64,000 nucleotides of DNA from Flavobacterium johnsoniae UW101. GTDB taxonomy: Bacteria > Bacteroidota > Bacteroidia > Flavobacteriales > Flavobacteriaceae. The translations under genes were made by a program, and so were the position numbers. Position 1 is the stretch's first letter, and each line of letters begins with the position of its first letter. Location: assembly GCF_000016645.1 (NCBI RefSeq), contig NC_009441.1:1860001-1924000 (forward strand), read 5' to 3'. Below the pieces are notes generated by a model. It was not told the DNA's origin. It did not search any database and saw only the letters and a list, made by a program, of their open reading frames with translations. Shown here in pieces: positions 8,446 to 11,715 of this stretch.

Positions 8446-8623
8446 ATTAAAAATATTAGTCTGTAAAAATAAACAATTGGGGTTTAAAAAACGATTCGGT
8501 TTCTGAAAATAAATTTTTTAAGCGGTATAAGCTATACAGACTTATTTTAGTAGAAGTGCGTCCTGCAGCGATGAACCGCAAGCAAAGCGTTAATATCAAG
8601 TTAAAATTTTTTATTCAGGGATT

Positions 8624-8659
8624 TCTTCATTTTTTCTTCATGTTGCGAAGGTAATTTTG
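8624..8659 (+). promoter_or_regulatory. Promoter with TCTTCAT direct repeat (small Lys/Ala-rich gene 1)
   Basis: TCTTCAT at 8624-8630 and again at 8635-8641 (11-bp period), then -7 box TAATTTTG at 8652-8659, ATG at 8701. The second repeat overlaps the -33 region, as expected for an OmpR-type activator site. The same elements with the same spacings occur at 11370-11405. Confidence 0.75.
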
Positions 8660-8700
8660 AACTGTAAAATAAAAGGTATTTAATTTAAATCTTAGAAATC

Positions 8701-8898
8701 ATGAGAAATTTATTGATGGTATTAGTGGCAGTTTTAGGAACAAGTGCAATGGTTCATGCGTTTCCTGCAAAAGATGGTAAAACAGTTCCTGCAAAAGAAG
8801 TAAAAGCAACAAAACATCCAAAAAACAAATCTGATAAAAAAGTAAAATCAGAAAAAAGTGAAGCTCCAAAAGCTGAAACAGCAAAAGTAAAAAAATAA
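8701..8898 (+). CDS. Small exported Lys/Ala-rich protein 1
   Basis: 65 residues. A signal peptide (MRNLLMVLVAVLGTSAMVHA, cleavage near residue 20) precedes a mature chain of about 45 residues rich in Lys, Ala, Pro and Glu, with no predicted globular core and no Cys. The segment PAKEVKATKH is shared with the next gene and, less exactly, with the gene at 11447, so the three are paralogues. The start is supported by the signal peptide and by a promoter 42 bases upstream. In size, export signal and composition it resembles E. coli Asr, a periplasmic acid-shock protein, but this is analogy, not demonstrated homology. Confidence 0.8.
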   Translation: MRNLLMVLVAVLGTSAMVHAFPAKDGKTVPAKEVKATKHPKNKSDKKVKSEKSEAPKAETAKVKK

Positions 8899-8950
8899 AC
8901 AAACAAAAAATTTAGAATAAAAAGGTAATTAATTTAAAAATTAAAAAGTC

Positions 8951-9133
8951 ATGAAAAATTTATTTATTGTATTAGCAGCAGTTCTAGGAACAAGTGTAAT
9001 GGTTAGTGCTCAAACAACTCCAGCTCAGACAGCACCGGCAAAAGAAGTGAAAGCTACAAAACACCATCACAAAGGAAATAAAAAAGCAAAAGCTGAAACT
9101 CCAAAAGAAGAAACAGCAGCTGTGAAAAAATAA
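8951..9133 (+). CDS. Small exported Lys/Ala-rich protein 2
   Basis: 60 residues. Signal peptide MKNLFIVLAAVLGTSVMVSA followed by a mature chain starting QTTPAQTAPAKEVKATKHHH, rich in Lys and Ala with a three-His cluster. It is 52 bases after gene 1 with no separate TAnnTTTG promoter or TCTTCAT repeat in the gap, so the two are probably cotranscribed. Gene 1 and gene 2 share signal-peptide text (VLGTS-MV) and the PAKEVKATKH segment, pointing to a recent duplication. A terminator follows at 9212. Confidence 0.8.
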   Translation: MKNLFIVLAAVLGTSVMVSAQTTPAQTAPAKEVKATKHHHKGNKKAKAETPKEETAAVKK

Positions 9134-9211
9134 GAATTATTCTCGTTTTGTTTTCGAAACATTGTAACGAGGGCAAAACAGGAATAATGATTATGATGAA
9201 TGCGATTGAAG

Positions 9212-9244
9212 AAGCTGATAAAGAAATTTGTCAGCTTTTTTTAT
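9212..9244 (+). terminator. Terminator after small genes 1-2
   Basis: AAGCTGA (9212-9218) pairs with TCAGCTT (9231-9237), followed by a run of T. Upstream, at 9142-9165, CTCGTT/AACGAG and an inner TTTCGAAA form a second possible hairpin. Confidence 0.75.
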
Positions 9245-9320
9245 TCGTTAATTTTTTAATAATGTGCAGCCGGACTTTTGATAATTGATTAATTTTAGTT
9301 GCACATAAATGCCTTGTTTT

Positions 9321-9995
9321 ATGAATGTTTTAATTGTAGAAGATAATAAAGAGCTTGCCGTTGAAGTTTACGACTTTTTGAGCAAAGCAGGTTATATCTG
9401 TAAAATTGCGAATAATTGTGCCGATGCTCTCGAAGAATTTGGAAGTAATGATTATGATGCTATGCTGCTTGATCTTGGTTTGCCGGACGGAGATGGTTTT
9501 GAGGTTTTGCAGACCATTCGAAAAACAAAATCAAAAATTGCAGTAATTGTACTTACTGCCCGCGGTGAACTAGATGATAGAATTAATGGACTTCATTTGG
9601 GAGCTGATGATTATTTAACGAAACCTTTTGCTTTGACAGAATTGGCTGCCAGATTGTTTGCCGTAATCCGACGAATTCATGGTTTTACTTTAAATAACTT
9701 AAGTATTCACGGTTTTTTGCTGCAGCTTCAGGATTATAAAGTGAGTTTTAATGAGGTGCCTTTGAGTTTAACAAAAAAGGAATTTGATATTTTTCAATAT
9801 TTGGTTTTGAATAAAAACAGAGTAATTACAAGACTGCAATTAACAGAACATATTTGGGGCGATATTCTGGAAATAAATTCAGATTCTAATTTTATAGATG
9901 TGCATGTTCGAAACCTTCGAAAAAAATTAGACAAACACACTTCAATAGATTGGTTTGAAACGGTTCGAAATGTGGGGTATCGTATTAATGAATAA
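9321..9995 (+). CDS. OmpR-family response regulator
   Basis: The reading frame opens at 9309, but the family N-terminus is MNVLIVEDNKEL, so I place the start at 9321 (224 residues). The receiver domain shows the acidic pair ED near residues 7-8, phospho-acceptor D51 in MLLDLGLPDG, T79 in VLTARG and K101 in LTKPF. The C-terminal winged helix is OmpR/PhoB type, with LTKKEFDIFQYLVLNKNRV and FIDVHVRNLRKKLD. The kinase gene follows 10 bases later. The paired TCTTCAT repeats before the two flanking small-gene promoters have the spacing expected for tandem OmpR-type binding, so those genes are its likely targets. Confidence 0.93.
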   Translation: MNVLIVEDNKELAVEVYDFLSKAGYICKIANNCADALEEFGSNDYDAMLLDLGLPDGDGFEVLQTIRKTKSKIAVIVLTARGELDDRINGLHLGADDYLTKPFALTELAARLFAVIRRIHGFTLNNLSIHGFLLQLQDYKVSFNEVPLSLTKKEFDIFQYLVLNKNRVITRLQLTEHIWGDILEINSDSNFIDVHVRNLRKKLDKHTSIDWFETVRNVGYRINE

Positions 9996-10005
9996 ATAGA
10001 TTTTT

Positions 10006-11343
10006 GTGAAGATAAAACATCAATTAGCCATTTTTAATGCACTAACAAGATTGCTGGTGATTTTGATTTTGTGGCTCATGCTTCCTATTTTGGTCGAAAA
10101 TGTGGTTTACAGACATATCAATAATGGGTTAATTGAAAAAAAGAAGAAATTCATCGACCATTTAAATCAGCAGGAGATTAATGATTTTATTGAAAATGAA
10201 GATGATTCAACTGAAACCTATTCTCAGTTTTCTACACTTCATAACGAGTTTTTGGTTCTTTCGAGAGCGCCGTTTAAACCACATCAAAAAAGAACAAGTT
10301 TTAGCAACGAATACCGTATTATTGAAGGCGAAGAAAATGAATACCGAATTCTGCAGCATCATTTTAGTTACGAAAATCAAGATTATCAGCTGGAAATTGG
10401 AAGTAGTTTAAGTGAAGTAAAAGACTTAACTTTTATTATTAAGCTGTTTATAATTGTTGTTTTGGTTGTTATTCTTTTTGTGACATTTTTGGCAGATACT
10501 TTTTATATCGAATATTTGCTGAAACCGTTCTATAAAATCATTGACACCAAAATAAGGCGAGTCAATGAACCCGAAGTTTTTGACCATACGCCCATAAATG
10601 CAAAATCGAGGGATTTTAGAGAACTAGATTTGGTTTTAAATCAAATGATGGATCGTATTGCTGAGCTTTTCAAAAAAGAAAAACAATTTATTTCGAATGT
10701 TTCTCACGAACTTTTAACGCCAATTGCTTTATTGAAAAACAAGCTGGAAAATTTATTGCAAAATGACTCTTTAGATGACAATGCAGTTGATAAAATTGCG
10801 GGTTCGTTGAAGACGTTAGATATGCTGAAAAAAATCATCAATAATTTATTGCTGATTTCCAGAATCGAAAACAATCAATATGCAGCTAACGAACATGTCA
10901 GTTTTCAGGAAATAATAAATGATCTGCAGGAAGATCTTCAGGATCGTATTGATGATAAAGAAATTCAGTTTGTTAATAAAGCAGGACATGATTTTGCTTT
11001 TACGGGAAATAAAACCTTAATTCATATTCTAATTTATAATTTGGTTACAAATGCCATTAAGTATAATAAACCTAAGGGAAGCATTATTGTAACAGACGGA
11101 TTTTTGAACCATCACTATTTTATTTCAATAACAGATTCTGGAATTGGTTTAAATGAATCTCAAATCGAAAATATTTTTAACCGATTTGCAAGAGTAAGTT
11201 CTGATCAGGAAGGACAGGGCTTAGGACTTGCTATTGCTAAAAGCATTGCCGTTTTTCATCATATTGAAATAAAAGTTTCGTCTGTTTTAGGCGAAGGAAC
11301 AACTTTTACTCTATTGTTCCCGGAAGAACCAAAACACAATTAA
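10006..11343 (+). CDS. Sensor histidine kinase
   Basis: 445 residues starting at a GTG codon (10006), 10 bases after the response regulator. Transmembrane segments lie at about 12-31 and 143-166 and bracket a roughly 110-residue periplasmic sensor region (acidic, E/N/D-rich, unrecognised). A short HAMP-like linker precedes the H-box FISNVSHELLTPIALLKNKL, the N-box LVTNAIKYN, the G1 motif DSGIGL and the G2 motif GQGLGLAIAKSI. It should autophosphorylate the H-box His and pass phosphate to D51 of the adjacent regulator. The stimulus is unknown. The acidic sensor domain and the basic small exported proteins encoded on both sides could interact, but that is inference. Confidence 0.94.
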   Translation: MKIKHQLAIFNALTRLLVILILWLMLPILVENVVYRHINNGLIEKKKKFIDHLNQQEINDFIENEDDSTETYSQFSTLHNEFLVLSRAPFKPHQKRTSFSNEYRIIEGEENEYRILQHHFSYENQDYQLEIGSSLSEVKDLTFIIKLFIIVVLVVILFVTFLADTFYIEYLLKPFYKIIDTKIRRVNEPEVFDHTPINAKSRDFRELDLVLNQMMDRIAELFKKEKQFISNVSHELLTPIALLKNKLENLLQNDSLDDNAVDKIAGSLKTLDMLKKIINNLLLISRIENNQYAANEHVSFQEIINDLQEDLQDRIDDKEIQFVNKAGHDFAFTGNKTLIHILIYNLVTNAIKYNKPKGSIIVTDGFLNHHYFISITDSGIGLNESQIENIFNRFARVSSDQEGQGLGLAIAKSIAVFHHIEIKVSSVLGEGTTFTLLFPEEPKHN

Positions 11344-11369
11344 AAGTTAATTTTTTCAGATTGGTTCAA

Positions 11370-11405
11370 TCTTCATTTTGTCTTCATTTACTGGTTATAT
11401 CTTTG
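11370..11405 (+). promoter_or_regulatory. Promoter with TCTTCAT direct repeat (small Lys/Ala-rich gene 3)
   Basis: TCTTCAT at 11370-11376 and 11381-11387, then -7 box TATCTTTG at 11398-11405, ATG at 11447. Distances from first repeat to -7 box (28) and to ATG (77) are identical to those at 8624-8701, although the sequence between is not conserved. Confidence 0.78.
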
Positions 11406-11446
11406 AGGTATAAATAATGAAATAATAATCAAATAAATCTACAATC

Positions 11447-11629
11447 ATGAAAAAATTAATTTTATTAGCAGTAGCAGTTTTAGGAACAACAGCAATGGTA
11501 AACGCTCAAACAGCTCCAGTAAAAGAAACTCCGGCAAAAGAAGCAAAAGCTGCTAAGAAAGAGAAAAAAGCAGATAAAAAAGCTAAAAAAGCAGAAGCTA
11601 AGCCAGAAGCGGCAAAAGCTCAAAAATAA
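11447..11629 (+). CDS. Small exported Lys/Ala-rich protein 3
   Basis: 60 residues. Signal peptide MKKLILLAVAVLGTTAMVNA, then a mature chain beginning QTAPVKETPAKEAKAAKKE and continuing as almost pure K/A/E repeats, strongly basic and probably disordered. It is a paralogue of the genes at 8701 and 8951 (shared PAKE-KA core). It lies 103 bases after the kinase stop but has its own promoter, so it is a separate transcript. A palindrome at 11631-11647 and a strong terminator at 11675 follow. Confidence 0.8.
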   Translation: MKKLILLAVAVLGTTAMVNAQTAPVKETPAKEAKAAKKEKKADKKAKKAEAKPEAAKAQK

Positions 11630-11674
11630 TACAACAAGGCTTGTTGTAGAATAAAGGTTTTGAATAATTTGGTC

Positions 11675-11715
11675 GCAAAAGCTGATAGAGAGATCTATCG
11701 GCTTTTGCTATTATT
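11675..11715 (+). terminator. Terminator after small gene 3
   Basis: A 14-bp stem (11675-11688 with 11695-11708, one G-U pair) with a 6-base loop, then a T-rich tail. Confidence 0.85.

What the first reader, a model, noticed from the sequence alone, without database searches (positions are those of the whole stretch)
8624..11715. Two-component system flanked by three paralogous Lys/Ala-rich exported micro-proteins with matching promoters
Seen: small exported proteins of 65, 60 and 60 residues (8701, 8951, 11447) surround an OmpR-type regulator and its kinase. Both small-gene promoters have TCTTCAT twice at 11-bp period, 28 bp ahead of the TAnnTTTG box and 77 bp ahead of the ATG, at both sites. 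The repeats and spacings are conserved while the intervening bases are not. Known: OmpR-family regulators bind tandem direct repeats of about 10-11 bp, and E. coli Asr is a basic, Ala/Lys-rich periplasmic acid-shock protein under OmpR-type regulators. Inference: this is a self-contained envelope stress (perhaps acid or cation) regulon in which the regulator turns on the small basic proteins, which may buffer, chaperone, or feed back on the acidic sensor domain of the kinase.
Basis: partly seen in the sequence, partly recalled or inferred. Interest (0 to 1): 0.75.

Follow-up and report, generated by a model that had tools for sequence, protein, structure and literature searches.

The report
Kinase-regulator pair controlling lysine-rich exported microproteins
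In about a quarter of the Flavobacterium genomes examined, a sensor kinase and its DNA-binding partner sit with a few tiny, very basic exported proteins that share one strictly conserved promoter signature, which points to a dedicated but still untested switch for an undescribed envelope protein family.

Summary
TCTTCAT-N4-TCTTCAT occurs twice in the 6.10 Mb genome, both here, each 10 bp before TAnnTTTG and 77 bp before an ATG. After the kinase gene the box is kept with at most 1 mismatch in 35 of 35 loci read, down to 54% kinase identity, while spacers drift. Across 329 Flavobacterium genomes, 91 of 91 kinase-positive genomes have at least one box, against 1 of 238 negatives. In one genome the kinase-regulator operon is unlinked, yet three microprotein genes elsewhere keep perfect boxes. 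The microprotein family was strong in 3 of 3 kinase-positive genomes and in none of 27 negatives. The repeats flank the -33 position and share the geometry of a PmrA box. Best reading: the phosphorylated regulator binds the repeats and activates these secreted lysine/alanine-rich proteins. Regulation is well supported by comparison but untested at the bench; signal and protein function are inference. Asr, PmrA and PorY memberships fail curated cut-offs. A published table probably lists this kinase as PorY, which I think misleading.

The parts
8598..8604 (+). AAGTTAA element about 25 bp 5' of the first box (role unknown)
   Evidence: A similar stretch lies at this distance before both box promoters in most of the 35 loci
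8624..8641 (+). TCTTCAT-N4-TCTTCAT direct repeat, proposed regulator operator 1; N4 (8631-8634) falls at the -33 position
   Evidence: upstream box at <=1 mismatch in 31 of 35 loci and in 77 of 80 named loci
8652..8659 (+). -7 element TAATTTTG
   Evidence: consensus from a passage of PMC6847099
8701..8898 (+). microprotein S1, 65 aa: signal peptide plus Lys/Ala-rich tail (net +9 after predicted cut)
8951..9133 (+). microprotein S2, 60 aa, likely same transcript as S1; HHH run; net +6 after predicted cut
9208..9241 (+). terminator-like hairpin closing the S1-S2 unit
   Evidence: 15 pairs
9321..9995 (+). OmpR/PhoB-type response regulator (ORF caller starts at 9309)
   Evidence: recognition-helix stretch SDSNFIDVHVRNLR identical in the 35 sequences aligned
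10006..11343 (+). sensor histidine kinase, 445 aa, two long helices flanking an acidic Cache/PAS-like periplasmic domain (GTG start)
11344..11350 (+). AAGTTAA element 5' of the second box (role unknown)
   Evidence: Identical 7-mer in 30 of 34 other loci
11370..11387 (+). TCTTCAT-N4-TCTTCAT direct repeat, proposed regulator operator 2; N4 = TTTG at the -33 position (11377-11380)
   Evidence: 0 mismatches in 29 and 1 mismatch in 6 of 35 loci
11398..11405 (+). -7 element TATCTTTG
   Evidence: TAnnTTTG exact in 35 of 35 loci
11447..11629 (+). microprotein S3, 60 aa (net +8 after predicted cut); the most widely conserved target
11675..11708 (+). terminator-like hairpin closing the S3 unit
   Evidence: 15 pairs

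Best explanation
This is a two-component system whose main and perhaps only job is to switch on a few small secreted, lysine/alanine-rich, nearly arginine-free proteins. The membrane kinase senses something in the periplasm through a small acidic Cache/PAS-like domain and phosphorylates the adjacent OmpR/PhoB-type regulator. A head-to-tail regulator dimer then sits on TCTTCAT-N4-TCTTCAT (half-sites CTTCAT, 11-bp period) at about -40 to -23, flanking the -33 position, and helps RNA polymerase to start from the TAnnTTTG promoter. The products are exported by Sec, trimmed to short polycations (40-45 residues here), and probably act as disordered cationic protectants or chaperones at the envelope. 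Shown by sequence: parts, spacing, conservation, co-occurrence, and trans-association in one genome. Inferred: binding, activation rather than repression, the signal, export, and effector function. The regulatory half is the better supported (about 0.85); the effector half about 0.4.
For: Two exact sites in 6.10 Mb, both here. In 35 loci aligned on the downstream box, bits per position are 1.92 and 1.97 for the two repeats and 1.67 for TAnnTTTG, against 1.31 for N4, 0.97 for N10, 1.02 for the 5' flank and 1.09 then 0.67 for the 3' stretches. TCTTCAT is found in 34 of 34 other loci, including 11 of 11 with <=71% kinase identity; the median over all 99 7-mers of that leader is 9 and 1. Named loci: downstream box at <=1 mismatch in 78 of 79 readable. 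Co-occurrence: kinase in 91 and box in 92 of 329 genomes; compared by hand, the lists differ only in G017, whose hit is repeat-like. G627: operon on contig C19 without a box at <=1 mismatch in the 13 kb read, three microprotein genes on C33 and C10 with 0-mismatch boxes, so linkage alone does not explain the pairing. In L241, L246 and L247 a box lies 153-276 bp before the regulator gene with no ORF of 40 aa or more between, as for autoregulation. Box-led first ORFs: of 234 in 127 partly redundant loci, 230 are Lys-rich small ORFs by composition and 1 more by eye; 3 are or precede PepSY-like genes. Microprotein family: strong in 3 of 3 kinase-positive genomes, in 0 of 27 negatives. PmrA-box geometry and -33/-7 numbering are from passages of PMC3973317 and PMC6847099.
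Against: No expression, binding or mutant data in anything I read. The regulator gene in this genome has no TCTTCAT box before it. The upstream box is missing in 4 of 35 loci, and its -7 element is imperfect in 3 more. Most co-occurrence is expected from physical linkage; only G627 clearly breaks it, and its C19 stretch does hold a 2-mismatch look-alike, antisense inside a neighbouring ORF. Three of 27 kinase-negative genomes have weak profile hits, two of them Lys-rich exported ORFs that I cannot wholly exclude as distant kin. A 1-mismatch site before kdsA recurs in close relatives, so 'only these targets' may be too strict. Sign of regulation and effector function rest on analogy.
Confidence: 0.7

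Rival explanations
1. The microproteins are mainly feedback ligands: exported polycations that bind the acidic sensor domain (or the anion it senses) and turn the kinase down or up, making a closed homeostat.
For: Sensor net charge -3 to -11 in 35 of 35 sequences; mature microproteins +7 to +14 in 230 of 230 scored, with a crude signal cut; their genes flank the kinase in most loci; no other target of the strict box is conserved across the genus as far as searched.
Against: Opposite charges are cheap to come by; no interaction data. The acidic loop of the sensor varies between species.
Confidence: 0.2
2. The conserved repeats are an element for another factor or part of the core promoter, and the neighbouring regulator does not bind them.
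For: The N4 spacer lies where the -33 element is expected, so part of the conservation could be promoter strength.
Against: The exact motif is otherwise absent from the genome, absent at <=1 mismatch with its -7 element from 237 of 238 kinase-negative genomes, and present with the kinase even where unlinked. General promoter elements would be common.
Confidence: 0.1
3. The kinase is the F. johnsoniae PorY and acts with the orphan regulator PorX on type IX secretion; the small genes are bystanders.
For: Best NCBIfam model for the kinase is T9SS_HK_PorY, 261 bits. Table 1 of PMC5445135 lists Fjoh_1592 as the PorY homolog, which by position is very likely this gene.
Against: Score is under the 350-bit cut-off, while another kinase of the same genome scores 410. 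It has an adjacent DNA-binding regulator; no match at E<=1e-100 in 238 of 329 Flavobacterium genomes, whereas PorX homologs are said to be in all species with T9SS components (PMC10951265, passage).
Confidence: 0.06
4. The microproteins are precursors of a modified peptide or antimicrobial (RiPP-like).
For: S2 gives a weak match to chryseobasin precursor ChrA, E 0.0027.
Against: 18.3 bits against a cut-off of 50; Cys, Trp and Tyr each round to 0.0% of pooled mature residues; the neighbours polA and a phosphoesterase are in place in 32 of 35 loci. A maturation enzyme was not searched for by model.
Confidence: 0.04

Closest known systems
PmrA/PmrB (BasRS) and its PmrA box
   Same: OmpR/PhoB-type regulator (PmrA is its best NCBIfam hit, 182.5 bits), 6-bp half-sites with 5-bp gap, His and Asn of the recognition helix shared (VHVRNLR here, VHIHNLR in BasR)
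   Different: Below the 330-bit cut-off; half-site CTTCAT rather than CTTAAT; Arg replaces the second proposed specificity His; targets are microproteins, not lipid A modification genes (the latter recalled)
E. coli Asr acid shock protein
   Same: Small exported basic Ala/Lys-rich protein (composition recalled); described as an intrinsically disordered chaperone of the periplasm (passage of PMC10746267).
   Different: Far below the Asr model cut-off; no acid link tested; here the small genes lie with a dedicated kinase-regulator pair
PorY sensor kinase of type IX secretion
   Same: Second-best PorY-model kinase in this genome
   Different: Paired with its own DNA-binding regulator next door and its own likely targets; below cut-off
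PepSY-like periplasmic proteins
   Same: In L061, L066 and L121 the upstream box precedes a PepSY-like gene in place of S1 (L061 judged by eye only)
   Different: None stands at the S1 place in this window; the two proteins scored are at 26.7 and 17.4 bits against a 28.3 cut-off

Membership tests
OmpR/PhoB response regulator | Receiver domain plus Trans_reg_C winged helix above Pfam gathering scores | tested here: met
   93.9 bits (cut-off 30.2) and 78.6 bits (cut-off 26.2)
PmrA (NF007928) | Curated equivalog score of 330 bits | tested here: not met
   182.5 bits
PmrA (as a mode of action) | Binds two 6-bp half-sites 5 bp apart, head to tail | tested here: inconclusive
   Geometry present in the DNA; binding not testable with these tools
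Asr acid shock protein (NF033636) | Curated equivalog score of 50 bits | tested here: not met
   17.9 bits for S2; no Asr hit listed for S1 or S3
Asr (as a mode of action) | Acid-induced periplasmic disordered chaperone | not testable with these tools
   Needs expression and chaperone assays
PorY sensor kinase (NF052314) | Curated subfamily score of 350 bits | tested here: not met
   261 bits; another kinase in the genome scores 410
PorY sensor kinase | Orphan kinase without adjacent regulator, partner PorX | tested here: not met
   A regulator precedes the kinase in 35 of 35 loci; P. gingivalis porX and porY lie at separate loci (passage)
Chryseobasin-type RiPP precursor (NF050124) | Curated score of 50 bits | tested here: not met
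   18.3 bits for S2
Chryseobasin-type RiPP precursor | MNIO maturation enzyme nearby | not tested
   No model of that enzyme was searched
PepSY_like (PF11396), for the replacement gene in L066 and L121 | Pfam gathering score of 28.3 bits | tested here: not met
   26.7 and 17.4 bits; resemblance only
Cache/PDC-type extracytoplasmic sensor | Structural match of the sensor domain to solved Cache/PDC domains | tested here: inconclusive

The most novel reading that the evidence does not exclude
A genus-restricted, nearly closed signalling circuit whose sole conserved output is its own exported polycation, which in turn titrates the acidic sensor or the anion it watches: a periplasmic or surface charge homeostat built from one kinase, one regulator and an undescribed, nearly arginine-free microprotein family.
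Probability: 0.18. Interest if true: 0.75.

Novelty: new variant of a known kind. Interest (0 to 1): 0.52.

Why it matters
It offers a compact, genetically tractable circuit in what is very likely a standard laboratory flavobacterium: a predicted operator of known position, two promoters and a secreted microprotein family that no Pfam or NCBIfam model covers at cut-off. It would show how an OmpR-family activator works on the unusual Bacteroidota -33/-7 promoter. It would also question the likely PorY label of this kinase, and asks why a whole two-component system is kept for such short proteins.

Tried and rejected
kdsA as a general third target. A 1-mismatch site precedes kdsA here, and similar sites show in 17 genomes in the printed, cut part of the list, all kinase-positive. 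In 15 kinase-positive and 15 negative genomes (20 positions scored), best matches were 1 mismatch in G000, 2 in G103 and G054, 3 in G008 and G073, and 6-10 in the other ten positives; negatives had 5-11. I reject it as a genus-wide target but leave it open for the F. johnsoniae clade. At <=3 mismatches this genome has 9 sites against 1 for the reversed control; one of them precedes a sulfatase-domain gene beside another kinase, and I did not pursue these loose sites across genomes.

A wider origin: the kinase at E<=1e-75 was found in 2 of 397 family genomes and the exact pattern in the same 2, both Flavobacterium. Looser relatives were not pursued.
Full report
Identity of the genome. The window is bases 1,860,001-1,924,000 of a single 6,096,872-base contig. 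That size is, from memory, the F. johnsoniae UW101 chromosome; no tool named it. Of the 80 named relatives kept (115 were confirmed, 80 is the cap), 76 are labelled Flavobacterium, 3 Flavobacteriaceae bacterium and 1 [Flexibacter] sp..

Observation. Each measured claim holds: three small exported ORFs, an OmpR-type regulator, a kinase, and two TCTTCAT-N4-TCTTCAT boxes with identical spacings to TAnnTTTG (28 bp) and ATG (77 bp). The exact paired motif occurs nowhere else in the genome; about 0.18 pairs are expected by chance, 1.4e-4 with the -7 element (first-order model from window composition). The middle small gene has no box and most likely shares the first promoter; 15-pair terminator-like hairpins follow S2 and S3 (4 such sites found in the stretch, 1.4 expected). 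So there appear to be three units: S1-S2, regulator-kinase, S3.

Conservation. The kinase was searched in 121 Flavobacterium genomes, own included; 35 matched at E<=1e-60, and I read the locus in all 35. The box after the kinase gene has 0 mismatches in 29 and 1 in 6 of 35, with TAnnTTTG exact in 35. The upstream box is at 0 in 22 and 1 in 9 of 35, and missing in L059, L060, L064 and L065; its -7 element is imperfect or shifted in L043, L062 and L063. Repeats carry 1.83-1.97 bits per position against 0.93-0.97 in the 10-bp spacer. Among the 7-mers of the S3 leader, TCTTCAT is in 34 of 34 other loci while the median of 99 is 9; in the 11 most diverged loci the figures are 11 and 1. In the 80 named loci, partly the same species, the downstream box is at <=1 mismatch in 78, at 2 in 1, and 1 is unreadable at a contig end; the upstream box is at <=1 in 77, while L176, L186 and L202 gave none in the stretch scanned, L176 and L202 being short at a contig end. 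A Lys-rich small ORF follows the kinase in all 35 loci by eye; polA and the phosphoesterase flank the set in 32 of 35.

Co-occurrence. In 329 genomes the kinase is in 91 (E<=1e-100) and the box with -7 element at <=1 mismatch in 92. Comparing the printed lists by hand, they differ only in G017, whose hit lies in a repeat-like stretch. For most genomes I did not check that the box lies at the kinase locus. The 91 include two whose kinase reads in two frames (G677, G663) and one partial match (G558). The reversed-pattern control had one hit in the 329 genomes. Much of the coincidence is linkage. G627 is the useful exception: its regulator and kinase lie on contig C19 with no box at <=1 mismatch in the 13 kb read (one 2-mismatch look-alike is antisense inside a neighbouring ORF), while two microprotein genes remain between polA and the phosphoesterase on C33 and a third, diverged one sits by a transposase-like ORF on C10, each with a 0-mismatch box. 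In L241, L246 and L247 a box stands before the regulator itself. A profile of the microproteins found exactly three in this genome, all here, and strong hits in 3 of 3 kinase-positive genomes searched. The 27 kinase-negative genomes gave none strong and three weak ones (E 2.6e-4 to 3.7e-5): one is a different protein matched over its signal peptide, the other two are longer Lys-rich exported ORFs without a box, which I cannot wholly exclude as distant kin.

Mechanism. In F. johnsoniae the -7 element spans -12 to -5 and -33/-7 is TTTG/TANNTTTG (passages of PMC6847099; the authors find the -33 motif much weaker than the -7 one). The box therefore spans about -40 to -23 and its N4, often TTTG, sits at -33. 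That is where an activator touching polymerase would sit; I infer activation. The half-sites CTTCAT-N5-CTTCAT have the geometry of PmrA boxes (CTTAAG and XTTAAT, 5 bp apart; passages of PMC3973317 and PMC10927774). The regulator's recognition stretch SDSNFIDVHVRNLR is identical in the 35 sequences aligned. Of two PmrA residues proposed as specificity determinants, the first His is kept and the second is Arg (by alignment), which suits a one-base change in the half-site but does not prove it. The kinase sensor is acidic in 35 of 35; a model of residues 1-215 shows a long helix, a five-strand sheet and a second long helix, most like Cache/PDC sensors with middling scores. The pooled mature small proteins, partly redundant, are 27% Lys, 20% Ala and 0.2% Arg, with Cys, Trp and Tyr rounding to 0.0%, net charge +7 or more (crude signal cut; my cut for S2 here gives +6). 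I think disordered envelope protectants most likely; a feedback role is the main rival.

Evolution. In L061, L066 and L121 the upstream box precedes a PepSY-like gene instead of S1 (L061 by eye). These are diverged loci, so the upstream target seems to have changed while S3 stayed.

PorY. PMC5445135 Table 1 lists Fjoh_1592 as the PorY homolog. The kinase here is the only PorY-model hit (E<=1e-10) between 0.70 and 2.28 Mb, and gldL, Fjoh_1854 in that table, is at 2.14 Mb. I infer, without an annotated record, that Fjoh_1592 is this kinase. It scores 261 bits against a 350 cut-off, while a kinase at 3.61 Mb scores 410 and also has its own regulator, next to EptA-like and sulfatase-domain genes. 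I would not use the PorY name here.

What remains open: the signal, direct binding, the sign of control, export, and function. That this is not in print rests on searches of an open-licence library. I saw listings for most papers, and passages of PMC5445135, PMC10951265, PMC11320123, PMC6847099, PMC9723704, PMC3973317, PMC10927774, PMC10746267 and PMC10434189; none was read whole.

Noticed in passing
window 8598-8604 and 11344-11350: AAGTTAA followed by an A/T-rich run is conserved about 25 bp before both boxes, and a similar GTTAA(A/T) stretch recurs before the regulator gene in many orthologs; role unknown.
   Followed up: partly
G000:C1:4187120-4187155 (L069): One-mismatch box with exact -7 element before kdsA (named by recall of the sequence), shared with close kinase-positive relatives but degraded elsewhere.
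   Followed up: yes
L116 (G000:C1:3609000-3620000): The kinase scoring best on the PorY model lies in an 11-kb stretch of 50% GC with its own regulator, an EptA-like and a second sulfatase-domain gene; looks foreign in a genome that is AT-rich by recall.
   Followed up: partly
L061, L066, L121 (upstream box): A PepSY-like protein gene takes the place of S1 under the upstream box in diverged species.
   Followed up: partly
L239, L120, L153 (genome G627): Regulator-kinase operon separated from its three microprotein genes, one of which lies beside a transposase-like ORF.
   Followed up: yes
L240 (genome G677) and L241 (genome G663): The kinase reads in two overlapping frames while the boxes and the downstream microprotein gene are intact; pseudogenes or sequencing errors. 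Described only.
   Followed up: no
L245 (genome G722): Two boxes stand 150 bp apart before a single microprotein gene, one with 1 and one with 0 mismatches.
   Followed up: no
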